From: a virus | Direction: 5' to 3' (one strand) | Virus record (IMG/VR): IMGVR_UViG_3300001680_000001 | Span: 1-45,207 of that record | Length of the DNA: 45,207 nucleotides | Part shown: positions 1,433 to 20,536 of the stretch, in pieces | Layout of the letters: each line of letters opens with the position of its first letter | Position numbering within the stretch: position 1 is the first letter of the stretch | The notes under the pieces: model-generated | Database searches by the model: none | Told to the model about the DNA's origin: nothing | The model's input: the letters and a program-made list of their open reading frames with translations, nothing else | Translations under genes and position numbers: made by a program

Positions 1433-2223
1433 TAGTTATCCCTCGCTACCACTGAAAGGTAAAGACGGTCGTACCTTGAGGTCTGGGTTACATGCAGACC
1501 GTAGCTTAAATCGGCACTATACACACGATTCTTACTTGCGTTCAGATTAAACATCATGCCCAGCTTCGTGACGTTTGCCAGGTCTTGCTTGGATAGCAGA
1601 ACGGTGCATATAACGGGGCCACCGTAGCTCGCGGTGTGTGGCCTGTCGTAGCTGCCCACCCCAGTTTTACTGAGCGTAGACGAGTATTGCAGGAACGGGT
1701 GAAAGACTAATCCATCCGAAGGGTTTGACGTGTACGGGCGCTGTTCACCGTCAGCCTGAAACCCAATACCGATACCCGCCGGTCTTCTATAATCAACGAG
1801 AGGAACCCATGCTCCACTACGGTAGACGGCGGGGGCGACCTCGCTATTGGAGCTAAACGAGTACGGGTAGTACCAGATCGTAAACTCTACAAGGTCAACA
1901 CCAGGCTCATCGCCATCTATGCTGTACTCAATCTCAAGGGTATTGTCAGACTCGGATGGCGTGTCCCTGTACAGCGTCCACCCCGCTCCCCCTGTCCCGA
2001 GTCCAGACACAGCGCCCCTACTCCATATCGCGTTACCGCAGTCCTTAAACATGAGGATGACGGGCGGTTTCTTTAGATGCCTAAACCGTATGGACTCATC
2101 ACTTAGGTTGTCAGACGTGAGCTTGTCGGAGTTTATGTACGCCCGGAAGTCGTCACGAATACTATTGTACGAGGCTTCACTTGGTTTTGAACCGAGGCGC
2201 TGGGAGAAAGTAAAGCGGGGCAT
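1432..2223 (-). CDS. Putative fibre or tail-associated structural protein (263 aa)
   Basis: It starts in a TAATG overlap with the preceding gene and ends in another TAATG overlap with the following one, so it is tightly coupled within the late operon. Residues 1-50 are helical and contain an INSDKL...NLSDESIRFRHL stretch of the kind found where phage fibre proteins attach or trimerise. The rest is rich in Tyr, Ser, Gly and Val, as expected for a beta-sandwich. No enzyme motif is seen. Position in the tail region supports a structural role; family unrecognised. Confidence 0.8.
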   Translation of the reverse strand: MPRFTFSQRLGSKPSEASYNSIRDDFRAYINSDKLTSDNLSDESIRFRHLKKPPVILMFKDCGNAIWSRGAVSGLGTGGAGWTLYRDTPSESDNTLEIEYSIDGDEPGVDLVEFTIWYYPYSFSSNSEVAPAVYRSGAWVPLVDYRRPAGIGIGFQADGEQRPYTSNPSDGLVFHPFLQYSSTLSKTGVGSYDRPHTASYGGPVICTVLLSKQDLANVTKLGMMFNLNASKNRVYSADLSYGLHVTQTSRYDRLYLSVVARDN

Positions 2224-2972
2224 TACCTGTTTCTCCTATGGATAGTAAGTGTCGATGCTTTTATTGAGAACGTAGCGCCAGGGTTGCAGTAAATGATAAC
2301 ACCTATGTTTCCGGTAACTCTTGGTACTGAGGCTGCGCCAGAGCCGGATAGGTGTATGTAGTCGCCAGACCCTATGCGGGAGCCAACCAACCATTTCCCA
2401 GTGGTAGTCCACTTGGTACGCCTGCGGGTACCGAACCTCGCAAGTTGAGTGTAGTCGTCGTACAGAAGCTCATAAGCCTTGTTATCTTCGCCAAGCCCTC
2501 CCCAATCCTTACCTCGTGCGTTGGAGTTAGAGATCGCCGTATTGTTGTGCCAGCCCATCTCAGCCTTAAAGTCCTGGGCTGTCCCAACGATTTGATCTCC
2601 TATGAACGCAACCCCTCCAGCATACCGATGATCCCCGAAGCCAGCAGTCGTCTCGCCAGTTGGCGACAACGTAAGCGACCAAGTGACCCAGTAGTCACCA
2701 AAAGCATCCATAGAGACTATCTTCTTAGACGCTGACGTTATGGTCCCTGTGGCTCCCTCCAGAACGCCAGCCGGATCTGTGGATAAAGCGCCCGCGCTGA
2801 ACATTTCAATGAACGCATCTATCGTAAACTTCTGTCTGCCAAACTGAGCGCGGGCGATGTTGTCAGAGTCGAGGTACGACATGCGGTTAGCCCACTGTAG
2901 CCACCCCTCCCACAGCTTTCGTTTGTCTAACGCGTAGTTTTCGTCGAACCTGTGAAGTCGAGTCTCAAACAT
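2223..2972 (-). CDS. Putative fibre or tail-associated structural protein (249 aa)
   Basis: The ATG at 2972 lies in a TAATG overlap with a short upstream frame. The first 50 residues are helical with a LDSDNIARAQFG element that resembles the segment at the same place in the next gene. The remainder is Gly/Thr/Ser-rich and probably beta-structured, ending in a basic tail. No known family was recognised. It lies directly downstream of the gp10-like hub gene and upstream of two further fibre-like genes, consistent with a tail-tip component. Confidence 0.8.
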   Translation of the reverse strand: MFETRLHRFDENYALDKRKLWEGWLQWANRMSYLDSDNIARAQFGRQKFTIDAFIEMFSAGALSTDPAGVLEGATGTITSASKKIVSMDAFGDYWVTWSLTLSPTGETTAGFGDHRYAGGVAFIGDQIVGTAQDFKAEMGWHNNTAISNSNARGKDWGGLGEDNKAYELLYDDYTQLARFGTRRRTKWTTTGKWLVGSRIGSGDYIHLSGSGAASVPRVTGNIGVIIYCNPGATFSIKASTLTIHRRNR

Positions 2973-3121
2973 TACTTCACCTCAACTATTGGCTTGTTCC
3001 TGGGAGCCTGTCCGTAAACCTTCATCGTCAACTGGTGCTGTCTGTCGGTCTTTGGCGCAGGTCTGGACGTGGAGCCTTTAGCTCTCAAGAGTACAGTTTC
3101 GTTTCTATTCCGTAGGCGCAA
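2972..3121 (-). CDS. Possible small coupled gene (about 49 aa, TTG start)
   Basis: Between the hub gene and the 249-aa gene lies a short open frame ending in a TAATG overlap with the latter, the same junction used by most late genes. A TTG at 3121 has an AGGG ribosome site 7 nt upstream; a later TTG (3088) or ATG (about 3025) is also possible. The product is basic and Pro/Arg/Lys-rich, with no recognisable domain. The coupling geometry is the main reason to take it seriously. It could instead be a leader that only keeps ribosomes on the message. Confidence 0.4.
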   Translation of the reverse strand: MRLRNRNETVLLRAKGSTSRPAPKTDRQHQLTMKVYGQAPRNKPIVEVK

Positions 3122-5303
3122 GATTAGTCCCTATTCCGTACTCAATGCCGATGGCCTTAATGCGTTGAGGCCCGCTGAACGTAAACCTAATGTCGTGCTT
3201 GAACGCCGTCACATTCTTGCGCATATCAACCTCGATATGGAAGTCGTTGGGGCCAACCCAATCAGAGCCATCCCAGGTTGATGTTCCATCGTTATAGTGC
3301 GGGTGATACTGGATGTCTTTCGTGACGGTAGACTTGGATGGGTAGGATACCGCGCTCCCTGTCCTGCTCTCAAACTCGTTAGAGCCGGTCACTGTTACAG
3401 CTACATCATTCTTTGATGCTGGCTCAAGGAATAGGGAGAGGCCGCTAAGGGTGCTCTCCCTCATAATCCCGCCCGACTTGTTTAGGATACCCCGCACATG
3501 AACCCTGGACTCCGCATAGTCGTTGCCCCGGTACATGAAGTAAATGGAGTCAGAGACACCTAAGATGTACTGACCGGATACCGCCATGTCTCTCACCGAC
3601 TCCTCAACTTGAAACCAGCGAGACGTTGGCAGGTGGCACATCAGCACAAAGTTGTTCTCGTCTGCCGTCATCTCCTTTCGGATAGACAAGAAGTACCACT
3701 CACCCTGCACAACTGAGTTCTGAACGTCGTGCCAGCGGTCGATGTAGTCGCCCTTTAAGAAGTAGGGAGACTTGGTTGGCGCGAACGCCTGGCCATCAAA
3801 CAGAAAGAACCCGTCATTGAACAGACCAAACGCACGGTCACCGAAGACTGCAAAGCTACGACCGTAGTAAGAGCCTTTGTTCTCATGCGTTTCCAAATGA
3901 GCAATAGCGCCTTCACTGGTAAAGTATAGAATCTCAGCAGTAGAGTGAGTCACGATCAAGAGCCGGTCACCAAGGGGCAGCAGCGCCTCGATTGTGTCCC
4001 GTGCCTTGTACGAGTTTGACGGTCTAAACTGGCCCTCCTTGCCCGCGTCAGAGAACATCATGCGCTCTTTGCGCAGGGGATCTCTCAGGATGACACGGTT
4101 GCCCCACGAAGCAATCAGGTCAGTTGACGGAGGCCCACGAACGCCACGGTCCAGAGCGGGGGAGTTAGCCAGAACCGAGTCTCCATTTATAGACGTGTGC
4201 CGGGTACAGTTGACATTGTTCTGAACGTAGTCCTGGTAGAACACCTCTTTACTGTTCGCCTTGTCTGGATGCAGGTCGAGCGTCTTATACAGGATACAGC
4301 CAGCGATGTGCCAATCGTGCTTGGGTGGTCGCCAGTAAACTGTTGACCAGTGCTTACCGTCCCAGTCAGCTAACGATACACGCTCCATCACGGACTGTTC
4401 TGGCATCCCTGGCCTAACGACTACAGCGGCGTTCTTTGGAACCGTTACGATTTGGGTCGCTGCCGACTCAGGACCAAGGTTCCCGTTCCGGTCAAAATAC
4501 TGGACCTTCCAACTCCATGACGTATCGTTCCAGTTGGCTGGGTCGTGGTAATCGCCAGAAGAATGAAGCCCATGGTAGTGGCCACCAGGCTCGTACTCTA
4601 TAGGCCCAGAATACCAGATACCAGGGTTTCCCCAGTAGCCGTACCTGCTAAACCTACCACCATACAGTTGCCCCACAGGGACGCTTTTCCCAACAACATC
4701 AATAATATCAGCAGACTGCTCACCTGTAGATGTATACCATGGCGTGCGTCCAACACTTACTGTTGGCGGGTCGGGTATCTCAGTCACGCCCAGTGGAACA
4801 ACGTCCTGAAACCCATCCCAGGTCAGGACGGGGTCACCCAGGTTGGCGATGATTAGACGGTTCTTGTGGACGGTTAGGGTTGGATAGCTTGCGCCATCCC
4901 TGGTCACACCAACAAAGGTGTAAAGAACCCGGTACCCGTTACCCTCAACCACACAGAACTGGCTGTCCTTCACAAACACAATGTGCTGTTGACCAGACGA
5001 GTCTCTGTAAATCCGTATGCGGGTAAACTTACCAGTGGGCGGCTGAGTGTAGACGTTAATGGCTGAACCAACCGAACCAGGAGACTCCGGCAGGTCGAGC
5101 GGGCTGGTGTCACTTCCAGGCTGTATTGGTTCAACCGTAACTGGCCGAAAGTACGGAGACTTCCCAGGATAGTTAACGAGGTACCCCTCGCCATCTGGGT
5201 AGAAGTTTACCGTTTGCTCACCAAGAACTGTGCCGTCAGTCTCATGCTCGTGGCTAAGACCGTCCAGCGGAACCAGTATGGTTTGCTTAACAAGCTCTGA
5301 CAT
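3105..5303 (-). CDS. Tail hub/nozzle protein, P22 gp10-like (packaged-DNA stabilisation type)
   Basis: This 732-residue protein follows the gp4-like adaptor, as in P22-type podoviruses. The N-terminus resembles the start of that family (an ordered strand, then EQTVNFYPDGEG). Repeated blade-like blocks follow, for example VHKNRLIIANLGDPVLTWDG near residues 147-166 and ASWGNRVILRDP near 390-400, consistent with the beta-propeller of tail hub proteins. No transmembrane segment is present. It is expected to close the portal/adaptor channel and carry the fibres. The start is coupled by TAATG to the preceding gene. The gp10-like assignment rests on layout and these motifs; confidence in a tail hub role is fairly high. 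Confidence 0.78.
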   Translation of the reverse strand: MSELVKQTILVPLDGLSHEHETDGTVLGEQTVNFYPDGEGYLVNYPGKSPYFRPVTVEPIQPGSDTSPLDLPESPGSVGSAINVYTQPPTGKFTRIRIYRDSSGQQHIVFVKDSQFCVVEGNGYRVLYTFVGVTRDGASYPTLTVHKNRLIIANLGDPVLTWDGFQDVVPLGVTEIPDPPTVSVGRTPWYTSTGEQSADIIDVVGKSVPVGQLYGGRFSRYGYWGNPGIWYSGPIEYEPGGHYHGLHSSGDYHDPANWNDTSWSWKVQYFDRNGNLGPESAATQIVTVPKNAAVVVRPGMPEQSVMERVSLADWDGKHWSTVYWRPPKHDWHIAGCILYKTLDLHPDKANSKEVFYQDYVQNNVNCTRHTSINGDSVLANSPALDRGVRGPPSTDLIASWGNRVILRDPLRKERMMFSDAGKEGQFRPSNSYKARDTIEALLPLGDRLLIVTHSTAEILYFTSEGAIAHLETHENKGSYYGRSFAVFGDRAFGLFNDGFFLFDGQAFAPTKSPYFLKGDYIDRWHDVQNSVVQGEWYFLSIRKEMTADENNFVLMCHLPTSRWFQVEESVRDMAVSGQYILGVSDSIYFMYRGNDYAESRVHVRGILNKSGGIMRESTLSGLSLFLEPASKNDVAVTVTGSNEFESRTGSAVSYPSKSTVTKDIQYHPHYNDGTSTWDGSDWVGPNDFHIEVDMRKNVTAFKHDIRFTFSGPQRIKAIGIEYGIGTNLAPTE

Positions 5304-10463: not shown

Positions 10464-10887
10464 TTTCTTCTCCTAATGGTTTATCTTCCCAAGAGTCAGG
10501 TACTCCAATGTACTTGCACTCGGGTTGGTCAAACTTGTCAAAATCCTTGTAGTTGTCAACGTCTGCATCTGATGTATACATTGTCGGCCTATCTGCCTCT
10601 GGTGTAACAGCGTCAACTAATCCATGCTCTTTGTAGTATCGTTTTCTTTCGCCTGGGTTTTCAAACACAACCGGAGGTTCGCCGCGTTTGCTAAGAAACG
10701 GATTAACCATCGGGTAGTTTTCGTTCTCAGCCTTAAGGCTCCACGCTCTACCCGGTATCGAAAATATCTTACCAGCCTTCTCACCACATTCCTCGCAGTC
10801 CGTTGGGATTAGCCTGTTAGCTACCGGGCGAGACTCAACAGTAATGTGCAAACATGAACGGTCGCTGCACTGGTATTCATAGAACAT
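10456..10887 (-). CDS. FmdB-like zinc-ribbon protein in the head module (143 aa)
   Basis: The ATG at 10887 overlaps the portal stop (TGATG). The N-terminus FYEYQCSD with C7 and C12, then C31 and C34 (CEECG), matches the FmdB/CxxC regulatory zinc-ribbon pattern (MPxYEYxCxxC...CxxC), except that the first pair is spaced by four residues. The acidic C-terminal two thirds have no recognised domain. Function is unknown; such proteins are small metal-binding domains of uncertain role. Its position between portal and scaffold is conspicuous. A second FmdB-like gene lies at 34561-34758. Confidence 0.8.
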   Translation of the reverse strand: MFYEYQCSDRSCLHITVESRPVANRLIPTDCEECGEKAGKIFSIPGRAWSLKAENENYPMVNPFLSKRGEPPVVFENPGERKRYYKEHGLVDAVTPEADRPTMYTSDADVDNYKDFDKFDQPECKYIGVPDSWEDKPLGEESV

Positions 10888-12758
10888 CAACCACTCCTGG
10901 CCAGCCCAGATAGGGCGTTATCGGTTGTTGGTGCCTGTACAGATTGAGACTGATCGGTCGGCCCTCTGCCTGGATTCGGATTAGGGTTTACTGATTGTAA
11001 CCCAGGTTGACCCTGCATAGGTGATATATTCCCCATGTCTGGCATACCCATATCTGGGGTGGGTTGTTTAACTGAGTCGGGTGGCCAGCCGAAGACACGC
11101 GCAACCTCTGTGGCCACCTTGTTCCATTCGTAGTTGGCGGCAAGGTCTGGGTTCATCGAAACAGTACGAATAAACTGCATTAACATCATCTTATCTTCGG
11201 CCCCTGGGTCTGGACCCATATCCTTAACGTCGATGTTGTAAATCAATGAAGTTGTAAAGTCATGCTGCCCGTGGTCGAACGTTACAACCCTATGCCCGTA
11301 TTTGTATTGCTGTTTCTTTCCGTGAAAGATACCCAAAATAAACATCAACTTAGTGATTGATTCTTCTGCCGCCTCTGCGACAAGCTCGCGCATCCCGCCA
11401 ATAATCTGGTCAGTTGCCTCAACCAGAGCAGATGTTTGACGGGCGCTAATCTTCTTAACCGCCTGACCTTTGTCAATCTCTGATGTGGCTGTGCTCTGCT
11501 GTGCGATCTCACGCAAGAAGCGCACGTACTGTATTTTGTTCAGGTCGATACCTGGGCCGCGCTCAACCTTGATGCCGTCTACACGGTTGACCTTAATCAA
11601 GCCCCTGTATGATGGGTTTAGGAGCTTCTTCGCGTCGTCATCCTTCAGGTTCGCCGTCTGGTCCGCCAGGATCTTCGGATTTAGACTGTCCATCATGTCC
11701 TGGTCAATGGACTTCAGGGCGATGCTGTACATGTCCGATATAGGAACAATGTCGTCCACTACTGTGCGCTCTAAAAACTTACCCATCTTGGTCAGCTTGA
11801 CCGGAGTGTAGGGGGTCATCCCTCCCCACGGGTTCGGCATGTCCCGAATAACCTCGTCCTCATCTCCCAGAACCCAGCACGCAAACCAGTTGTTATACCG
11901 AGAGTCGAGACGGTCACGCTTAACCCAGCACTCGACTATTAGTACAATATCTTCCCCAAGGTATTGAAAGTCGAGGCCGGGAAACAAATGCCAATACTGA
12001 CGAGAGATGCCTGTGACCTTGGGTTCAGAGCCGCCAAGCGTCTTAAGCTCGTCAAGCGTTACGGGGCGAAGTCTCGCAACGTAGTCGGCATCAAGGTAGT
12101 TCTCTATGTTGGCGGGGGTGATAATGTGCTTTCCGTTTACGTGGGTAAGATACGGAAAGCCTATCCCGGCATCGTTGAAGACCGGACTCGGCTCCTTGTC
12201 TACCCCCGTAAGGAACGAATCAGGCCCAAACTCAAGCGGCGAAAGATTGTCCACCTTCTCTAAGTCAATGCCCTGGGAGGCTACGAGATTCGGATCTACC
12301 TCTTCCCACTGAGACTCAAGAGAGGATGGGTCAGTTACGTTACGGTTAATGCCTGCGTACTGATTCGGGTTCATGCCCCACGCCGCATACGGGTGTCCAA
12401 CTTCAAGCCAACCCATGCTGTACGTTGAGAACATTGTCGCCTGACGTAGCGCGTCCTTCATGCGCACAATGCGGGACATGTCGTTAACTACAATCTCAAG
12501 ATCATTCGCGCTCTTTGCAAACTGACTATCCGCAGCGCGCACCCGGATGGCCGGGTCTTTGTTTACAACGCGGTGGTAAATCACCTTCTCAAACTCACGT
12601 ACAAGGTTCCCCTTATACTCGGCTGGGTTCCCTAAGCGGTCCTCAGTCTCGTTGCGGACATACTTCTCGTTACGGGTCCATGTCTTATCTATGGCAGACA
12701 TTCTCCACTGGAGATCACGACGTACCCGCTGGTCCCACTTTTCAAAATCAAAAGCCAT
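10887..12758 (-). CDS. Portal protein
   Basis: The 623-residue product follows the large terminase by one base (TAGATG). The N-terminal helical region contains YKGNLVREFEKVIYHRVVNKDP. The central region includes DMYSIALKSIDQDMMDSLNPKIL and later ISARQTSALVEATDQIIGGMRELV (about residues 430-455), a portal-like crown/stem helix arrangement. The C-terminal tail is Pro/Gln/Asn/Met-rich and probably disordered. The portal is the dodecameric channel for DNA packaging at the capsid vertex. Assignment rests on position, length and general architecture. Confidence 0.9.
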   Translation of the reverse strand: MAFDFEKWDQRVRRDLQWRMSAIDKTWTRNEKYVRNETEDRLGNPAEYKGNLVREFEKVIYHRVVNKDPAIRVRAADSQFAKSANDLEIVVNDMSRIVRMKDALRQATMFSTYSMGWLEVGHPYAAWGMNPNQYAGINRNVTDPSSLESQWEEVDPNLVASQGIDLEKVDNLSPLEFGPDSFLTGVDKEPSPVFNDAGIGFPYLTHVNGKHIITPANIENYLDADYVARLRPVTLDELKTLGGSEPKVTGISRQYWHLFPGLDFQYLGEDIVLIVECWVKRDRLDSRYNNWFACWVLGDEDEVIRDMPNPWGGMTPYTPVKLTKMGKFLERTVVDDIVPISDMYSIALKSIDQDMMDSLNPKILADQTANLKDDDAKKLLNPSYRGLIKVNRVDGIKVERGPGIDLNKIQYVRFLREIAQQSTATSEIDKGQAVKKISARQTSALVEATDQIIGGMRELVAEAAEESITKLMFILGIFHGKKQQYKYGHRVVTFDHGQHDFTTSLIYNIDVKDMGPDPGAEDKMMLMQFIRTVSMNPDLAANYEWNKVATEVARVFGWPPDSVKQPTPDMGMPDMGNISPMQGQPGLQSVNPNPNPGRGPTDQSQSVQAPTTDNALSGLARSG

Positions 12759-14903
12759 CTACCAGACCTCAATACCGTTGTGGGAAAAAATAGACTCCAT
12801 TGAATCTGCCGGGGGAAGTGGGGGCTGTGGTTCAGGTATACTCTCAATCATACGCCCCGTCAACCCTACACGGCAGACCTCTGCGTGCCCTCTGGCAAAC
12901 AAACAATCGTCATGTCTACCAGACGACGGCTCCACCTTTCCGTTCGGTTTTCTAACTAACGACTTCATCTCATCAAACAAATGCTGGGAGCGCACCCGAG
13001 TTGGGTCATCTCTGATCGCTGCCCTGTGCATGTTTAAAAATGGGATGCGAGCGCCGGGGCCAATAATAGACCAAGCAAGGTCAGATACACGGCCCCGAGA
13101 ATCGTCACGGTAAAATACGTTTGGATAGCCTGTGGGTTCAAAAAAAGCCCAAACAGTAGCTCCATCTTTGTTCCTTTCACAGTTCACCCTCGCGTTGTTG
13201 TAAAACCTTCCAAGGAGGATGAGGTAATACGCCAACTCTTCCGGCGGTATCCTGTCACGAAACATAGCAACGTCACGACCGTACTCGTCTAAGACCCACA
13301 GCACCGAATAGTCTGCCTCTGACTTCGACCCGTTTAGTATGGTCTTACCCTCCGCTACGTCACCACCAATGAAATACCGCTCCCCCTCTTCGGGCATCTG
13401 CCACACACGAAGCTGGCCGTACTGCTCAGGGACTATCTTTGGCTCCATCCTCAACGCAGAGGTAAGCTGCAACGTTGTTATCGGCTGCCCAGTGTGCTCT
13501 ATCCTCCCGATGAAGCAAGGCTCCTGGCACTCGATCCTATTAAGAACACTGTGAGGGTAGTAGCCTATACCTATGCTTGCCCACGCATGGTCCGGGGTGG
13601 TTGGGTACTCCTGATCGAATACGACATTATCTCCACCAAACCCAGTAGGGGACGGTGCTTTAATCTTCATCCTGCGCCAGTAAATCTGGGCATACGACAA
13701 GTTATACTTGCGAGCAAACCCTTCCTCAGTCAGCGTGATCTCTCCCTCTCCGTCTGTCTCGCATACTTCAAGGTCGTTGTTGAGCCACTTGAACTTTCCT
13801 TTGTGGAACGCCCTGGCTGGTGGGACTTTGCTGTACTCCTCGGACACATACCAAGGCAGAAAAATAGGAACAACGCGAACATCGCTAAACTCATCCTGAG
13901 ACTCGTGAATCCGCACCCAGTCCGATTTGAAGTCATCGTACCCCTCCGCTGTAGACTCATCCACAACCAGCGTGTGACGGGTAACAGGTATCGTTGGCAT
14001 GATGGATGCCTTCACCTGCTGTGACCGGCCTACAGGCCACTTCGGGCGCTCAGACTGGTGTAGCCCCTGCAACATCTCCGATGTACCAGGGTTAGGACTC
14101 TCAGCCGACTCAAGCAATATCCGAGAACCGTTCGTAAGCTCCAGTACCTTTGATGCCCTACGCTTCAGGGTGGGCATACTGGGAAAACGCTCAGCGGCAG
14201 TCTCAATCCAACCAATAAGCATCTGCCGCTTCTCTTCCGAGTGCGCCCCCTTATCAATCATAAACATCGTGGTGTAGCCCTCAATCTGGTAGCAGAGCCA
14301 GAGGTTGAACACCAAGAACATTGTTGTCACGCCAAGCTGGCGAGACTTTAGAATCTGCAAACGAACAGGTACCTGCTTGTTGAAGAACAAATCAATCGCT
14401 ATCGAGATTACCTTCTTCTGTGCGCCCGTCAGTATAAACGGGCCGAAGCCGCCATTCTCACAGTGATCTCCCATGCCGGGCCGATACTTGATCCTGATCG
14501 CCTCTATGCAAAACAGCTCAAAGTCAGAAAGCAGGTCATCTACAGTTAGCTCTACCGCGCCGCCAGTTGGAGGTACACTAACGCAAACATCGACGCTATC
14601 AGCACCAACCACACCAACGCCTGGTCCTCTTCCTTCATCCCTGACCTCCGGTACAACGAAGCAATCATCGCGGCCCATCAATGAAATCTCAAGTGGCGAT
14701 GCGCCTACGGTTTGAACATACAACTCAAGTGCCCGCTGGTCAAGTTTGCGGAAACTTATGTCCTGTTCTGACATCTCAGCAAGTTCAACAAATGTGTCAA
14801 TCCACGCAGATAACTCTTCGTCGTGCGGGTACCCCAGGTACTTGGCCTTCTTCTTGACGTATGCCTCTACGTCTAAACACAGGTTTGGTTTACTATTCTT
14901 CAT
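12759..14903 (-). CDS. terL: Terminase large subunit
   Basis: The ATPase-nuclease that pumps DNA into the prohead. From the ATG at 14903 (714 aa) the Walker A-like loop LKSRQLGVTT lies near residues 182-191, the Walker B/DE region TLVVDES near 313-320, and the RNase H-like nuclease begins with GGDVAEG near 510. A final catalytic Asp pair is suggested by RHDDCLFA near residue 670. The first 130 residues are an extra N-terminal domain not essential to the core fold. The start overlaps the upstream gene by 11 nt. A TTG 42 nt upstream is possible but has no ribosome site. Confidence 0.96.
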   Translation of the reverse strand: MKNSKPNLCLDVEAYVKKKAKYLGYPHDEELSAWIDTFVELAEMSEQDISFRKLDQRALELYVQTVGASPLEISLMGRDDCFVVPEVRDEGRGPGVGVVGADSVDVCVSVPPTGGAVELTVDDLLSDFELFCIEAIRIKYRPGMGDHCENGGFGPFILTGAQKKVISIAIDLFFNKQVPVRLQILKSRQLGVTTMFLVFNLWLCYQIEGYTTMFMIDKGAHSEEKRQMLIGWIETAAERFPSMPTLKRRASKVLELTNGSRILLESAESPNPGTSEMLQGLHQSERPKWPVGRSQQVKASIMPTIPVTRHTLVVDESTAEGYDDFKSDWVRIHESQDEFSDVRVVPIFLPWYVSEEYSKVPPARAFHKGKFKWLNNDLEVCETDGEGEITLTEEGFARKYNLSYAQIYWRRMKIKAPSPTGFGGDNVVFDQEYPTTPDHAWASIGIGYYPHSVLNRIECQEPCFIGRIEHTGQPITTLQLTSALRMEPKIVPEQYGQLRVWQMPEEGERYFIGGDVAEGKTILNGSKSEADYSVLWVLDEYGRDVAMFRDRIPPEELAYYLILLGRFYNNARVNCERNKDGATVWAFFEPTGYPNVFYRDDSRGRVSDLAWSIIGPGARIPFLNMHRAAIRDDPTRVRSQHLFDEMKSLVRKPNGKVEPSSGRHDDCLFARGHAEVCRVGLTGRMIESIPEPQPPLPPADSMESIFSHNGIEVW

Positions 14904-15255
14904 TGGTTGGTAGTGGTTTACTGTCTGAAATAATACGTGTGTCAATGATTGTTGGCAATCTACGAGGCTTTCTTAGTAACTCGTTCGGGTCGCGAGACTT
15001 GCGTGGAAGCAACTGCTCCCCAGCGAGGCCAAGCTCACCACCGCTCAAAATGTCAAACGCGATCAAGCCGCGCATTAGATCCTCGGGCTTCCGTACCCGC
15101 TCTATCTTGGAGACATGGAGGTCGCCCCCCTTGTCCCTTGTCTCAACTATCCTTACCGTCTCCCCTCGAATAACATCTGCGATGCTTGACGTTATCATCT
15201 CGTCGTCTACGCCTATGTCGCGCAAACGCTCAAGGAGTTTCGTGGAACTTATCAA
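14893..15255 (-). CDS. Putative terminase small subunit (120 aa)
   Basis: This frame sits immediately before terL and overlaps it by 11 nt. A TTG at 15255 with AGAAGG about 6 nt upstream is the first usable start after an in-frame stop; an ATG at 15198 is an alternative. Residues 1-35 (LLERLRDIGVDDEMITSSIADVI) are helical and could be a DNA-binding or oligomerising segment; the remainder is charged. The small-terminase call is based on position and size only. Confidence 0.6.
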   Translation of the reverse strand: MISSTKLLERLRDIGVDDEMITSSIADVIRGETVRIVETRDKGGDLHVSKIERVRKPEDLMRGLIAFDILSGGELGLAGEQLLPRKSRDPNELLRKPRRLPTIIDTRIISDSKPLPTNEE

Positions 15256-15774: not shown

Positions 15775-16341
15775 CTATACTTCTATAAGCGTATAAGTGA
15801 ACCTATGCCAGCCTCGCTCAGATACCTGCTTTCTGCATAAGTCCATAAAGCTCTGAAAATCCGATGAGTTAGCAAAAACCTGGCAGGCGGCGGACCACTT
15901 ATCCACAGATGTTGAATGTCCACCCGCTTTGTGGATATTTATACCGTATGTACCCCTATAAGTAACCGTGGTATCTGGATCGACAACGGCGTTCCTGTTT
16001 ATATCCCGATACACGTCCACGTTTTTACACTGGACCAGCGCCTCGTACTGGCCCCTGTGCATCCCTATTCTAAACGCAGACCTGTACTGCCCAGGCTTGA
16101 GGACTGCCGTACCAGCAACGTTCATCGGGTTCTCAAGGTAGTATCGGCCTGGGTCCGTGGTCGCGGCCCACGTCCGAGTCAGCCAGCCATCAGCGTCCTT
16201 GTAGGCTACGCAGAGCCTATCATCGAAAGTGTTGGGCACAGAGTCCTTAGACCGGATACCGATGATGTTCAGGTTGTACAGCCCATCCTCAAACACAGCG
16301 TAGCCAAGCTCCTTGACGCGCTCAAGGATGACGGGAATCAT
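15775..16341 (-). CDS. YkuD-like (L,D-transpeptidase-type) cell-wall protein, possible lysis factor
   Basis: 188 residues. The second half reads GINIHKAGG...KWSAACQV: H137 followed by S150 and C153, recalling the His...Ser-x-x-Cys active-site layout of YkuD-fold peptidoglycan enzymes, in which Cys is the nucleophile. The segment near residues 84-100 (GQYRSAFRIGMHRG) suits the substrate loop. No signal peptide or membrane segment is seen. Its start overlaps the upstream gene (ATGA), and small membrane genes follow. Whether it cleaves or modifies peptidoglycan cannot be told; the YkuD assignment is by motif only. Confidence 0.5.
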   Translation of the reverse strand: MIPVILERVKELGYAVFEDGLYNLNIIGIRSKDSVPNTFDDRLCVAYKDADGWLTRTWAATTDPGRYYLENPMNVAGTAVLKPGQYRSAFRIGMHRGQYEALVQCKNVDVYRDINRNAVVDPDTTVTYRGTYGINIHKAGGHSTSVDKWSAACQVFANSSDFQSFMDLCRKQVSERGWHRFTYTLIEV

Positions 16342-17340: not shown

Positions 17341-17688
17341 TTAGCCACCCATCCAAACGTCTACAGCCCAGTTTACCGTCGTTGTGCCAGCAGCAACCAC
17401 CGGCTTCAGGTAAATGCTGCCCGTATTGTCCGCCTGGTAGTAAATACCCTCCGCTGGAACCTCGTCGTGGTGAACCCCTGCCACCGAAATAGCCAAAACC
17501 TGGGAAATGGCGGCGGCAGCAAGCGGCTCCTCGGAAAGAACGGGCGTTGTGTTCGACCCAGACGTTACGTGGAAGCGAACAATGTAACCAGTCGGCGGAA
17601 CCGACAAAGTTATGACTGTTGCTGCGCTAACATTGGCCTGTGTGCCGGATATGCGCTTGGTACTTCTGCGAACTGTGTTGTGGGGCAT
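17341..17688 (-). CDS. Small beta-rich protein, probably structural (115 aa)
   Basis: After a basic N-terminal stretch (RRSTKRISG) the protein is Val/Thr/Ala/Ser-rich with strand-like alternation and ends WAVDVWMGG. AGGAGAA lies just before ATG 17688. The composition resembles the small head proteins at 6.6-8.6 kb, but there is no convincing alignment by eye. Function unknown. Confidence 0.7.
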   Translation of the reverse strand: MPHNTVRRSTKRISGTQANVSAATVITLSVPPTGYIVRFHVTSGSNTTPVLSEEPLAAAAISQVLAISVAGVHHDEVPAEGIYYQADNTGSIYLKPVVAAGTTTVNWAVDVWMGG

Positions 17689-17697
17689 GATGTTCTC

Positions 17698-18093
17698 CTA
17701 AAGTAATCCAGATAAAGACTCGGATGGCGAATCCGAATCCTTATCTGGTCGATTACTACCGACTGCGACGGCGGCTTTCTTCGCTTTCAAGGGCGTACCC
17801 TTCAACCGCTTCTTCGACCTGCCTTTAGGGCCACCTAAAGGAGCAGAAGAAGCAATAGGTTGACTGATTTCAACAGACCCGCCCTGTTGAACGGCGGGAG
17901 ATGTGGGGACTTCTCGCAGTGCGAAGCCTTGTTCCTGTAAGAACACCACATCACTTAATGCCTCGTCCCTCGCGGCTGCAAGAAACTCATCTACAGTGCA
18001 AAGGGGGAGGTTCCTGAGAGAAGATAAGGCACCCTTATGGGCGCGATCTACCCGCAAAAGCCTGGCACACCTAAGAACTCTGGATGATGACAT
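17698..18093 (-). CDS. First gene of the late operon, unknown function (131 aa)
   Basis: ATG 18093 has AAAGG six bases upstream. Residues 1-60 are a compact, Leu/Arg-rich region. Residues 60-131 are Pro/Ser/Lys-rich with a strongly basic patch (PKGRSKKRLKGTPLKAKKAA) and an acidic Asp/Ser end, so probably disordered. A nucleic-acid-binding role is conceivable. As the promoter-proximal gene facing the control region it could be regulatory, but no helix-turn-helix is evident. Confidence 0.7.
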   Translation of the reverse strand: MSSSRVLRCARLLRVDRAHKGALSSLRNLPLCTVDEFLAAARDEALSDVVFLQEQGFALREVPTSPAVQQGGSVEISQPIASSAPLGGPKGRSKKRLKGTPLKAKKAAVAVGSNRPDKDSDSPSESLSGLL

Positions 18094-18303
18094 ACATTAC
18101 CTTTACACGCGCGCGCGCGAGGCGCAAGTTTTGGGATTTTTTTCTGGGGGGTGCCCTGCTTTGGCCGAGTGTAGGGTGTATTGGCGCAGTGTTTAACAAT
18201 GTATGACAAAGTATGAAAGTGTAATATGCGTACAGGGTGGCTGTTGTAGTTATTCTTTATGATATGGGGGTAGAGGCAAGTTGCAGTTTTTGTACTATAT
18301 TGT

Positions 18304-18412
18304 TTATTTGGCTTTTGTGGCTTATTTGGCCTATGTTCTTTATTTGGTACCGCAAGAATCATGCCGGCATGGTTCTTGCATGTTGTTTATTTGGCTTATA
18401 TTCTTTATTTGG
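18304..18412 (+). repeat. Iteron-like TTATTTGG boxes at 18-bp spacing
   Basis: Exact TTATTTGG occurs at 18304, 18322, 18340, 18387 and 18405. The first three and the last two are each separated by exactly 18 bp, and the gap between groups is 47 bp. Regular spacing near two helical turns is typical of arrays bound by a replication initiator or a cooperative regulator. Confidence 0.7.
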
Positions 18413-18445
18413 TACCGCAAGAAACATGCCGGTATGATTCTTGCA
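18336..18445. repeat. Duplicated 45-bp unit carrying a 28-bp dyad
   Basis: A 45-bp unit at 18336-18380 recurs at 18401-18445, offset 65 bp. Each contains a 28-bp inverted repeat (18352-18379 and 18417-18444). The arms begin GCAAGAA and end TTCTTGC; 13 of 14 positions pair in the first copy and 12 of 14 in the second. The centre of the first copy, CATGCCGGCATG, is a perfect palindrome. The dyads could be operator or initiator sites, or form cruciforms; no U-tract follows, so they are not simple terminators. Confidence 0.8.
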
Positions 18446-18485
18446 ACGCGCACATGTGTTCAACCTATCCCCGTGTTTAGATTAT

Positions 18486-18535
18486 GATAATGATAATCAA
18501 AATCATTTAGCGTTATGATAATGATTATCAAAATC
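18486..18535. promoter_or_regulatory. Tandem Fur-box-like sites
   Basis: 18486-18504 reads GATAATGATAATCAAAATC and matches the 19-bp Escherichia coli Fur-box consensus at 17 positions. 18517-18535 reads GATAATGATTATCAAAATC and matches at 16. They are the cores of a tandem direct repeat with a 31-bp period (18483-18511 and 18514-18542), close to three helical turns. They could let the host iron regulator sense or control the early operon. AT-rich dyads can mimic such sites, so binding is unproven. Confidence 0.5.
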
Positions 18536-18556
18536 ATTTAGCTATGTATCCTCCCT

Positions 18557-18781
18557 ATGTTGAACATTTATTTACTCTCCTATTGTTCACTTTTGCCCTG
18601 CATTATCGCCATGTTGAACATGGGATATCGGAAACTATTTGTTGCGTGGCTTGTTCAACGGGATAGTGGATTTTTGAGACTTGAAACTCTCCTTGACAAC
18701 TTGATTAGCATTTACATCCGTTCTGAGGTGTATCTGTTATGGCTGGTTATTTGACATTCCCCTATACTCTTTGTTGAACAT
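18557..18781. promoter_or_regulatory. Repeated ATGTTGAACAT palindromes
   Basis: ATGTTGAACAT lies at 18557-18567 and, extended to 13 bp (CATGTTGAACATG), at 18610-18622. TTGTTGAACAT is at 18771-18781 and TTGTTCAAC on the same pattern at 18651-18659. A weaker TGTTCAACC is at 18457-18465. A further perfect copy, ATGTTCAACAT, is at 20160-20170 before the next gene cluster. Recurrence just upstream of early genes suggests an operator for a phage or host regulator. Confidence 0.55.
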
Positions 18782-18821
18782 TGCATGTTTATATCGTGGC
18801 CTCTATTTCTGGAGCACGATT

Positions 18822-19334
18822 ATGAGTTTAGACCTATTGAACTATGATGCAAGAGCCGGTGAAACACTGGCCGCTATTAAAGGCGGTTCGTTTATATCCG
18901 GTACGAGTATCGCCTGTAGAACGGGCGGTAACAAGGACGGGCCTGGCAGGGCTTACGGCTATCTACCGGCTATCGGTATATGTCCGGGCCAAAGCCGTAA
19001 CCGTTTTGAGTCCAGGGCTGCTATGATAGCTAACTGTTATCTGACTATGGCTAACAAGCAGAACAAGCTACAGGTGTACAAGCAAGCCGATGTGGCCCGT
19101 GCTGTGGCGCACAGCGTATTGAATGGCATGGCCAATGTTAGGCTTGCCGAGTATACGCCCGTCCAGGTCGGATTAATGAACAGCATGGACGGCAAGCGTG
19201 CCGATATTCGGCGCACCGTCGAGATGATAAAATACTTTGAGAGAAAAAAGGTAGATACCACGGACCTATTAGCTATCCTTGAGCAAGACAAGAAGCAGAT
19301 CGCAGAAATGAGCATAACCCTTAGACAATCTTAA
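18822..19334 (+). CDS. First early gene, unknown function (170 aa)
   Basis: ATG 18822 has GGAG 7 nt upstream and is preferred over an earlier in-frame TTG that falls in a repeated palindrome. The N-terminal half is Gly-rich with Cys at three sites (AIKGGSFISGTSIACRTGG, then GICPG). The C-terminal half is helical and charged, with a long terminal helix (TVEMIKYFERKKVDTTDLLAILEQDKK). It has no helix-turn-helix that I can recognise. Its promoter-proximal position suggests a host-takeover or regulatory protein. Confidence 0.75.
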   Translation: MSLDLLNYDARAGETLAAIKGGSFISGTSIACRTGGNKDGPGRAYGYLPAIGICPGQSRNRFESRAAMIANCYLTMANKQNKLQVYKQADVARAVAHSVLNGMANVRLAEYTPVQVGLMNSMDGKRADIRRTVEMIKYFERKKVDTTDLLAILEQDKKQIAEMSITLRQS

Positions 19335-19490
19335 CACAACCACGGCCACGATATAAAGATGTAACGTTCGACATAGATATAGACGGGAACGTTTACCTGT
19401 GAGCCACTTAAATGTATGGCACACACACCTGCGTCTACATACAGCGGACGCTACATTCACCTAACGCCACACTATGTGGGCGGGAGTACC

Positions 19491-19682
19491 ATGAGAACAT
19501 ACATATACCTTATCTACTTTCATCCCTCTGACTGTGATACGTGCAAACCATACTCTATTGGAGCGTTTGAATCCCATAGTGCTGCCTTGTTCCATCGGGA
19601 GTTAAGATTAGATCCGAGGTACAAGACGGAAGGATCTATAACCATAGAAGCTGTGCCTATTGGCGACACCTTTGAATGGTAA
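19491..19682 (+). CDS. Hypothetical early protein (63 aa)
   Basis: GGGAG five bases before ATG 19491 decides this start over an upstream in-frame ATG at 19416. The product starts with an aromatic strand (TYIYLIYFHPSDCDTCK) with a Cys-x-x-Cys pair and continues with SIGAFESHSAALFHRELR. Function unknown. It is isolated, with about 150 bp before it and a long non-coding stretch after it. Confidence 0.65.
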   Translation: MRTYIYLIYFHPSDCDTCKPYSIGAFESHSAALFHRELRLDPRYKTEGSITIEAVPIGDTFEW

Positions 19683-19842
19683 ACATTAAACTATGCACGA
19701 TGTACAACATTAGCCATAATGACGCGTCAAGAGCGCACCTAATGGACCACATCGACTTAATAACTCACAGCTTTTGTCCTATACACTTTTAAAACTACAC
19801 TACTGGATTACTTAGTAATATCATATACTTATATAACTATAC

Positions 19843-19959
19843 AGGTTCATACTACCTTATCCAATAAAGGGAGGTTCAACCTACCATATAAGAGACAGTG
19901 GTACACACCATACTGAACACAGATACAGTAGCGAATAACCCAGGTTGAAACTACCATAT
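19843..19959 (+). repeat. Three iteron-like AGGTT...CTACC repeats
   Basis: Copies begin at 19843 (AGGTTCATACTACC), 19872 (AGGTTCAACCTACCATAT) and 19942 (AGGTTGAAACTACCATAT). The last two share the ATAT tail. They follow an AT-rich stretch. The GTTCAAC core recalls the palindromes upstream of the first early gene, so one protein may recognise both. Confidence 0.55.
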
Positions 19960-19992
19960 GGGATAAGTGTATGATATCATTGTGTGTTCTTA

Positions 19993-20018
19993 CCCCCCTC
20001 GTTTCAAAAAGAGGGGGG
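19993..20018. other. Perfect 8-bp hairpin
   Basis: CCCCCCTC (19993-20000) pairs with GAGGGGGG (20011-20018) around a 10-base A-rich loop. There is no downstream U-run on either strand. It could block readthrough, serve as a single-strand initiation site, or mark the 5' end of a transcript. Confidence 0.5.
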
Positions 20019-20168
20019 CGCACCTGCGGAGATGTGTTCCACGTTATGTAAAATAATCCCAAAAGTCTTGACACTACATACCGTAGTTTTAACCGGGCAT
20101 ATGCCCATTTTATGCAACCCTCTGCATATTTTAGTAGTGGGTTATGTTCAGTAGTAAGGATGTTCAAC

Positions 20169-20237
20169 ATGACATTTCCAGTAGCACTCTCCATCCTCCT
20201 ATGCTGGGTCTACTTAGACGCCACGCTCGTACTATAG
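20169..20237 (+). CDS. Possible 22-aa membrane peptide
   Basis: ATG 20169 overlaps the ATGTTCAACAT palindrome, with TAAGGA about 9 nt upstream. The peptide is almost entirely hydrophobic (residues 3-16: FPVALSILLCWVYL). The overlapping longer frame that ends in the 72-aa gene also has a signal-like stretch (WAIATVSCSTVAQA), so an alternative reading is a leader peptide for that gene. Either may be chance in a region this short. Confidence 0.25.
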   Translation: MTFPVALSILLCWVYLDATLVL

Positions 20238-20317
20238 GTACAACCTGGGCTATCGCTACAGTATCGTGCTCCACGGTAGCCCAGGCTGTGCCCCTACATA
20301 AACAAGAGGACAAAGAC

Positions 20318-20536
20318 ATGAAAAGAAACTACCACCCAGCAGCAGTACGCATCATAGATATAGCAGAAGACAACTGCCGGTATAGCTCAAGTGCAAGGAT
20401 GGCACTCGATGATGCAATAGAATGTCATAATAACTATGACTTCAAACATGCACGTCTACGTGCACTTGATAGCTTGGCACATTCGGTGGGCATCATGTCA
20501 CACATCTACATCAACGCGGTAAACCTCCGCACATAA
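20318..20536 (+). CDS. Hypothetical early protein (72 aa)
   Basis: AGAGGA seven bases before ATG 20318 supports this start rather than the longer in-frame opening at 20144. The product is helical and His/Arg/Ala-rich (RIIDIAEDNCRYSSSARMALDDAIECHNNYDFKHARLRALDSLAHSVG), like a short TPR-like or four-helix fold. The leader CATAAACAAGAGGACAAAGA is closely repeated before the next gene. Confidence 0.7.
   Translation: MKRNYHPAAVRIIDIAEDNCRYSSSARMALDDAIECHNNYDFKHARLRALDSLAHSVGIMSHIYINAVNLRT

What the first reader, a model, noticed from the sequence alone, without database searches (positions are those of the whole stretch)
18486..18535. Tandem Fur-box-like elements upstream of the early operon
Two sequences match the E. 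coli 19-bp Fur box at 17 and 16 positions, 31 bp apart and on the same face of the helix. If bound, the host iron regulator could repress or time the early operon, an iron-responsive switch that I do not know to be described for such a phage. The nearby phage genes have no iron function.
Basis: partly seen in the sequence, partly recalled or inferred. Interest (0 to 1): 0.7.

Follow-up and report, generated by a model that had tools for sequence, protein, structure and literature searches.

The report
Tandem iron-regulator boxes in phage DNA
An uncultured phage carries two side-by-side copies of the DNA sign that bacterial iron regulators (Fur) bind, in its main control region; one relative keeps the same sign and a number of other phage contigs carry it too, which suggests that some phages read, or disturb, their host's iron status.

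Summary
Observation confirmed. Window 18482-18542 is a 31-bp tandem repeat; each unit holds a Fur box (17/19 and 16/19 to the E. coli consensus; 13/14 and 14/14 to the TGATAATnATTATCA core). Chance is excluded: 0 in 100 shuffles. It lies in a gap of about 728 bp between divergent gene blocks.

Evidence for selection: relative L004 (TerL 79% identical) keeps the element in the equivalent gap and orientation (27/33 identical; flanks 26 and 36 of 100); it is the best-aligning block of the two gaps. In five related records (188 kb) such boxes occur only there. Three relatives (L007, L008, L009) lack it; L009 has a run of N in its gap.

Of 120 IMG/VR stretches with a strong Fur box (capped scan) 66 are intergenic, against 1 of 52 for a reversed-pattern control. 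Several are arrays.

Host Fur binding is the likeliest reading. The effect is not shown: iron-dependent control of the divergent promoters is favoured; titration of Fur by replicating DNA is a serious rival. The host is unknown. Phage-borne Fur boxes (stx1) and host PhoB control of cyanophage genes are precedents, so this is a new variant. Relatives' gaps also hold perfect sigma54-type and Pho-like repeats.

The parts
18482..18542 (.). 31-bp direct tandem repeat (2 copies), the Fur-box array
   Evidence: TRF period 31, 2.0 copies, 96% matches; copies 97% identical
18485..18499 (.). Fur box 1, core TGATAATGATAATCA, 13/14 to 7-1-7; a second overlapping core follows at 18491 (12/14)
18516..18530 (.). 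Fur box 2, core TGATAATGATTATCA, 14/14 to 7-1-7
18510..18542 (+). 33-bp block conserved in relative L004 (3233-3265, - strand), 27/33 identical, same orientation relative to the divergent gene blocks
18094..18821 (.). divergent gap, read here as non-coding control region (ends at 18770 if the rightward gene starts at TTG 18771)
   Evidence: ORF list; sequence
17698..18093 (-). first ORF of the leftward block (131 aa, unknown function, relatives in L002, L004, L007, L008, L009); the block goes on to an endolysin-like gene (15775-16341) and the terminase large subunit (12759-14945)
   Evidence: one transcript is inferred
18822..19334 (+). first ORF of the rightward (replication) block, 170 aa from ATG, no family found
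18322..18445 (+). 65-bp tandem repeats, each with a 28-bp palindrome; weak sigma54-like -24/-12 (18364-18380, 11/13) and sigma70-like (TTGGTA-18-TATGAT, 18409-18438, 9/12) matches that would place a rightward start just before the Fur boxes
   Evidence: consensus matches only

Best explanation
The tandem repeat is an operator for the host's ferric uptake regulator. Iron-loaded host Fur binds both boxes on one face of the helix, and through this controls transcription from the divergent control region, most likely repressing or delaying the rightward early block when the cell is iron-replete and releasing it when iron is short. Shown here: the matches, their excess over chance, the tandem duplication, and conservation of the element in one relative. 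Inferred: binding by host Fur (about 0.75 likely), cooperativity, a cis effect on transcription, the direction of that effect, and which block responds.
For: Near-perfect Fur boxes far above chance. Over five related records (188 kb) sites with up to 2 mismatches occur only in this gap of the window and of L004; the backwards pattern gives 0. In an alignment made without reference to Fur, the best local match between the 728-bp gap of the window and the 1837 bp taken as the gap of L004 is this element (score 38; highest of 100 shuffles 27; highest of 50 shuffles 25). Its orientation relative to the gene blocks is kept. No FUR domain in the record and no DNA-binding family above Pfam's cut-offs in the 20 rightward-block ORF products scanned, so a host factor is the economical reader. 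Two of the four promoter-like matches in the gap, one in each direction, overlap the boxes, and one more lies just before them. Wider support: of 120 IMG/VR stretches with a strong box 66 are intergenic (32 of 56 flank groups) against 1 of 52 (1 of 22 groups) for the reversed pattern.
Against: Relatives L007, L008 and L009 show no box (best 14-15 of 27 positions), so the element is not essential in the lineage; L009 has a run of N in its gap. L001 and L002 end before the site, so only one relative keeps it. The promoter-like matches are weak (9/12; 4 found, 2.3 expected in shuffles). In L004 the element lies 191 bp from the leftward start that I chose (56 bp if ATG 3322 is used) and over 700 bp from the next rightward-sense ORF of at least 60 aa, so spacing is not conserved; the L004 gap as I took it also contains a 144-aa ORF (2076-2510). 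One early ORF product has a sub-threshold match to an arm DNA-binding domain (13.3 bits, cut-off 22.3), and most early proteins have no family at all, so a phage regulator could be missed. Host unknown: two scans of genome contigs found no relative. The survey control is not perfectly matched: loci of the control are denser in coding sequence (3.9% against 15.3% non-coding).
Confidence: 0.45

Rival explanations
1. Decoy: the boxes are there to bind Fur, not to control a phage promoter. As phage DNA replicates, many copies draw Fur away from the host chromosome and derepress host iron uptake, which feeds iron enzymes or receptor synthesis during infection.
For: Box-to-gene distance differs between window and L004 and no strong promoter is placed on the boxes. 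Other viral contigs carry arrays: 10 boxes of 12/14 or better within about 1.4 kb in L127, 5 in L041, 7 in L119 (6 of them in one gap), 3 in L131. The principle works: a Fur box on a high-copy plasmid derepresses fhuF-lacZ (PMC3145626, passages). Some phages raise host iron transporter genes, e.g. HTVC027P (PMC12753301, abstract and passages).
Against: The window has only two boxes. HTVC027P has no box of 12/14 or better in two pieces that together cover its genome, the join between the pieces excepted, so the published iron effect is not explained this way. A decoy would not need a fixed orientation, yet orientation is kept in L004.
Confidence: 0.22
2. Operator of a phage-encoded repressor whose site happens to look like a Fur box.
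For: Tandem palindromic operators in a divergent gap are typical of phage repressors (general knowledge); other operator-like repeats stand beside it (TGTTGAACA palindromes); relatives have other repeats in the same place.
Against: No DNA-binding regulator above a family cut-off was recognised among the ORF products scanned; one sub-threshold hint exists and most early proteins have no family. The match to the Fur consensus is near perfect, and the same consensus stands between genes in 32 flank groups of viral contigs.
Confidence: 0.15
3. The repeat belongs to another DNA transaction (replication iterons, packaging recognition) and does not act through Fur.
For: It sits in the main gap; in 12 of 19 other loci in which I scanned chosen flanking proteins a terminase gene lay within about 3 kb of the box.
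Against: Iterons or packaging sites of unrelated phages would not be expected to converge on the Fur consensus; the terminase association has no baseline and may only reflect where phages keep non-coding DNA.
Confidence: 0.08
4. Chance resemblance in AT-rich DNA, doubled by slippage.
For: The gap is AT-rich, and slippage readily doubles a unit.
Against: 0 in 100 shuffles; 0 at 13/14 in 2 Mb simulated from the local composition; conservation in L004.
Confidence: 0.04

Closest known systems
Fur box in the stx1 promoter region of Stx1-encoding phages (PMC5552940, passages)
   Same: A phage-borne site read by host Fur
   Different: There it serves the promoter of one cargo gene; here it is a tandem array in the divergent control region of a phage with no recognised iron or cargo gene nearby
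Host PhoB control of cyanophage genes (PMC10976474, passages)
   Same: A host nutrient regulator binds upstream of phage genes, among them the DNA polymerase gene
   Different: Phosphate, not iron; shown by gel shift and expression there, sequence evidence only here
Bacterial Fur operators with two boxes, e.g. the sci1 promoter (PMC3145626, passages)
   Same: Two Fur boxes in one control region, judged by the same 19-bp consensus
   Different: Those boxes match 13 and 11 of 19, weaker than here; one overlaps the -10 element, the other lies upstream of the -35
Ferrojan Horse hypothesis (search listing; passages of two papers that cite it)
   Same: Links phage infection and host iron
   Different: Concerns iron in tail proteins, not regulator sites in phage DNA

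Membership tests
Fur operator (E. coli type) | Match to 19-bp GATAATGATAATCATTATC or 7-1-7 TGATAATnATTATCA | tested here: met
   17/19 and 16/19; 13/14 and 14/14
Fur operator (E. coli type) | Excess over chance and conservation by selection | tested here: met
   Excess. Conserved in L004; absent in L007, L008, L009, so conserved in one of four relatives whose gap could be read
Fur operator (E. coli type) | Overlap with, or closeness to, a promoter | tested here: inconclusive
   Two weak promoter-like matches overlap the boxes and one lies just before; 4 in the region against 2.3 in shuffles
Fur operator (E. coli type) | Metal-dependent binding by Fur and iron-dependent expression | not testable with these tools
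   Needs protein and cells
Fur operator (E. coli type) | Host has a Fur of this specificity | tested here: inconclusive
   Host unknown; two scans of genome contigs found no relative; the record itself has no FUR-domain match
Fur decoy (titration) | High-copy boxes derepress the host Fur regulon | not testable with these tools
   Principle from PMC3145626 (passages); not tested for this phage

The most novel reading that the evidence does not exclude
Fur-box arrays are a recurrent, so far unnamed regulatory element of phages: host Fur is read, or titrated, by phage DNA in many lineages, often beside terminase genes. In this lineage the divergent control region is an exchangeable panel of sites for host nutrient regulators: Fur (iron) in the window and L004, Pho-like 11-bp direct repeats (phosphate) in L004 and L008, and sigma54 -24/-12 elements (often nitrogen-linked) in L004 and L007.
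Probability: 0.2. Interest if true: 0.85.

Novelty: new variant of a known kind. Interest (0 to 1): 0.6.

Why it matters
Iron limits growth in much of the sea and in animal hosts (general knowledge). If phages time their programme by host Fur, or pull Fur off the host chromosome, iron supply would directly set infection outcome, and infection would change iron uptake. The idea is testable at once with standard Fur assays and the DNA alone. The survey here suggests that the sign recurs in unrelated phage contigs and is not a curiosity of one record, although the strict pattern is rare among 2.9 million contigs.

Tried and rejected
Similar DNA in 50,697 phage records: none for 17501-20500; tblastn of ORF 10887-12758: none; the primase matched 50 records, the 40 listed at 24-25% identity, useless for the host. 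First rightward protein: no relative in IMG/VR and none in six related records. Exact 27-base repeat pattern in IMG/VR: none. Rfam at gathering scores: nothing in the window or in L007, L004, L009, L013. IMG sample numbers in the literature library: no paper. Cultured neighbours of box-bearing contigs: P-SSP10, 9515-10a, P-SCSP-R27W, S-CBP4, HTVC027P and 023Pt_psg01 have no box of 12/14 or better in the stretches fetched, and HTVC027P none in two pieces covering its genome; this went against the decoy idea. Three searches of box-bearing contigs found no similar DNA in phage records: L119, L116, L127; L131 had only short partial matches. Yersinia phage YeP2, near L064, keeps the box (14/14 core) close to one end of its record, with terS at the other end. 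Full Pho box with up to 3 mismatches: none in the five related records.

Literature searches that listed no report of Fur boxes as a general phage feature: (listings only; open-access library). A search on sigma54 and phage early promoters gave nothing on point in the 8 of 14 papers listed; passages of one (PMC3391216) concern a regulator gene, not promoters.

A first register of the flank comparison was off by 3 bases; the corrected figures are. An earlier count gave wrong L004 coordinates and flank counts for the element; 3233-3265 and one search are right. I dropped an early argument that the box is kept in 9 of 9 members of the L043 family: those members were found through the box pattern, so this is no test of conservation.

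Full report
WHAT IS THERE. The 45,207-bp window is a virus record without similar DNA in 50,697 phage records for the stretch tested. Two gene blocks diverge from a gap at 18094-18821: leftward, an unknown 131-aa protein, then on to an endolysin-like gene and the terminase large subunit; rightward, unknown small proteins, then a helicase, an exonuclease and a primase. The right end of the gap rests on my choice of ATG 18822; the ORF list starts that gene at TTG 18771. In the gap lie two 31-bp units, 18482-18542. Each holds a Fur box: 17/19 at 18486 and 16/19 at 18517 (17/19 on the other strand); 13/14 and 14/14 to the 7-1-7 core. Shuffles and simulations give none of this quality.

CONSERVATION. 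TerL searches gave eight and then ten loci with a related protein in IMG/VR. Four relatives (L004, L007, L008, and L003 extended as L009) contain the equivalent gap. L001 and L002 stop before the site; L005 and L006 had no box in what they hold; L016 and L018 were not examined for it. L004 has the element: 27 of 33 positions equal window 18510-18542, while the adjoining 100 bases agree at 26 (downstream) and 36 (upstream) positions. When the two gaps are aligned without reference to Fur, this block is the best local match (score 38; highest of 100 shuffles 27; highest of 50 shuffles 25). The L004 gap was taken as 1620-3456, which contains a 144-aa ORF that I did not count as a gene. The element points the same way relative to the gene blocks. 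Over five related records, 188 kb, sites with up to two mismatches occur only here and in L004, and the backwards pattern never. L007, L008 and L009 have no such site (best 14-15 of 27 positions); L009 has a run of N in its gap. So the element looks selected where present, but it is optional in the lineage: one of four readable relatives keeps it.

A WIDER PATTERN. I scanned IMG/VR for TGATAATGATWATCANNNTCA. The same string backwards gave 52, complete. With one simple ORF caller, 66 of 120 Fur stretches fall between genes, in 32 of 56 flank groups, against 1 of 52 and 1 of 22 for the control. Caveats: non-coding DNA is 15.3% in the 80 listed Fur loci (42 of 80 intergenic) and 3.9% in the control loci; the control is dominated by a few families; IMG/VR contigs may include plasmid or host DNA, and one box (L091) stands before a ZnuA-type metal-uptake gene. 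Of the 32 intergenic groups, 11 have a member with two or more boxes within 400 bp of the hit, among them those of L119, L127 and L131; L041 has five; L049, with many, is only 21% GC. One of the 32 groups is the L004 contig itself (L061). In the L043 family the box follows a terminator-like hairpin (by eye), and its terminase DNA is 66% identical to that of Pelagibacter phage HTVC027P over half the query. In 19 loci whose flanking proteins I chose and scanned, 12 had a terminase gene within about 3 kb of the box (L043, L045, L048, L054, L064, L087, L094, L116, L127, L131, L136, L152) and 7 showed none among the proteins scanned (L049, L091, L112, L117, L119, L139, L160). That choice was mine and there is no baseline.

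HOW IT PROBABLY WORKS. Host Fur is the simplest reader: the site is its consensus, the record has no FUR domain, and unrelated viral contigs carry the same site. The spacing of 31 bp allows binding on one face. I favour cis control of the divergent promoters, probably the rightward one. Four weak promoter-like matches lie in the region, against 2.3 in shuffles: two overlap the boxes, one in each direction (18490-18519 +, 18531-18502 -), and one lies just before them pointing rightward (18409-18438); a sigma54-like match at 18364 also points rightward. The decoy reading is a close rival: spacing to genes is not conserved, arrays of up to ten exist elsewhere, and a Fur box on a high-copy plasmid derepresses a Fur-regulated gene (PMC3145626, passages). 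Against the decoy, HTVC027P, which raises host iron transporters (PMC12753301, abstract and passages), has no box of 12/14 or better.

WHAT IS KNOWN. The stx1 promoter region on Stx1 phages has a working Fur box (PMC5552940, passages). Host PhoB binds upstream of cyanophage genes, and the same paper warns that predicted Pho boxes in phage genomes are not reliable without tests (PMC10976474, passages). That warning holds here. Searches for a report of Fur boxes as a general phage feature listed none, in an open-access library only.

VERDICT. It is a new variant of a known kind, of moderate to high interest, with the host and the effect unknown.

Noticed in passing
L004 2013-2029 (-); L007 5577-5593 (-) and 5382-5398 (-): Perfect (13/13) sigma54-type -24/-12 elements in the rightward-block direction in the control regions of two relatives, plus one 12/13 in L007. 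In 188 kb the only other matches with up to one mismatch are two 12/13 sites elsewhere (window 9113; L004 contig); the backwards pattern gives none. The window gap has only an 11/13 match at 18364.
   Followed up: partly
L008 683-843; L004 3077-3092: TGTCA-N6-TGTCA 11-bp direct repeats (Pho-box skeleton, also readable as tandem TTGACA): 5 matches in 188 kb, 4 in control regions (3 in L008, 1 in L004), 1 for the backwards pattern. No full Pho box within 3 mismatches.
   Followed up: partly
window 18105-18133; gaps of L004, L007, L008, L009: An alternating CG run (ACACGCGCGCGCGCGAGGCAAG or similar) stands just before the leftward block. It is the best local match in window-L009, window-L007 and L007-L009 above shuffles; in window-L008, L004-L007 and L007-L008 the score is at or below about the shuffled maximum. 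Function unknown.
   Followed up: partly
window 18558, 18612, 18772 (and 18190, 18457, 18652 with one mismatch): TGTTGAACA palindromes: 3 of the 7 perfect places in the whole window lie between the Fur boxes and the rightward block; perhaps a second operator family.
   Followed up: partly
window 18322-18445: 65-bp tandem repeat carrying a 28-bp palindrome GCAAGAATCATGCCGGCATGGTTCTTGC.
   Followed up: no
L007 4624-5365 (-): About 740 bases after the sigma54-type elements with no ORF above 69 aa on that strand; no Rfam family; folding only slightly better than shuffles (z -1.5, 1 of 20 shuffles as good).
   Followed up: partly
L127 9920-11356: Ten Fur-like boxes (12/14 or better) in one long stretch without long ORFs of an uncultured phage contig, with a terminase gene about 3 kb away.
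   Followed up: partly
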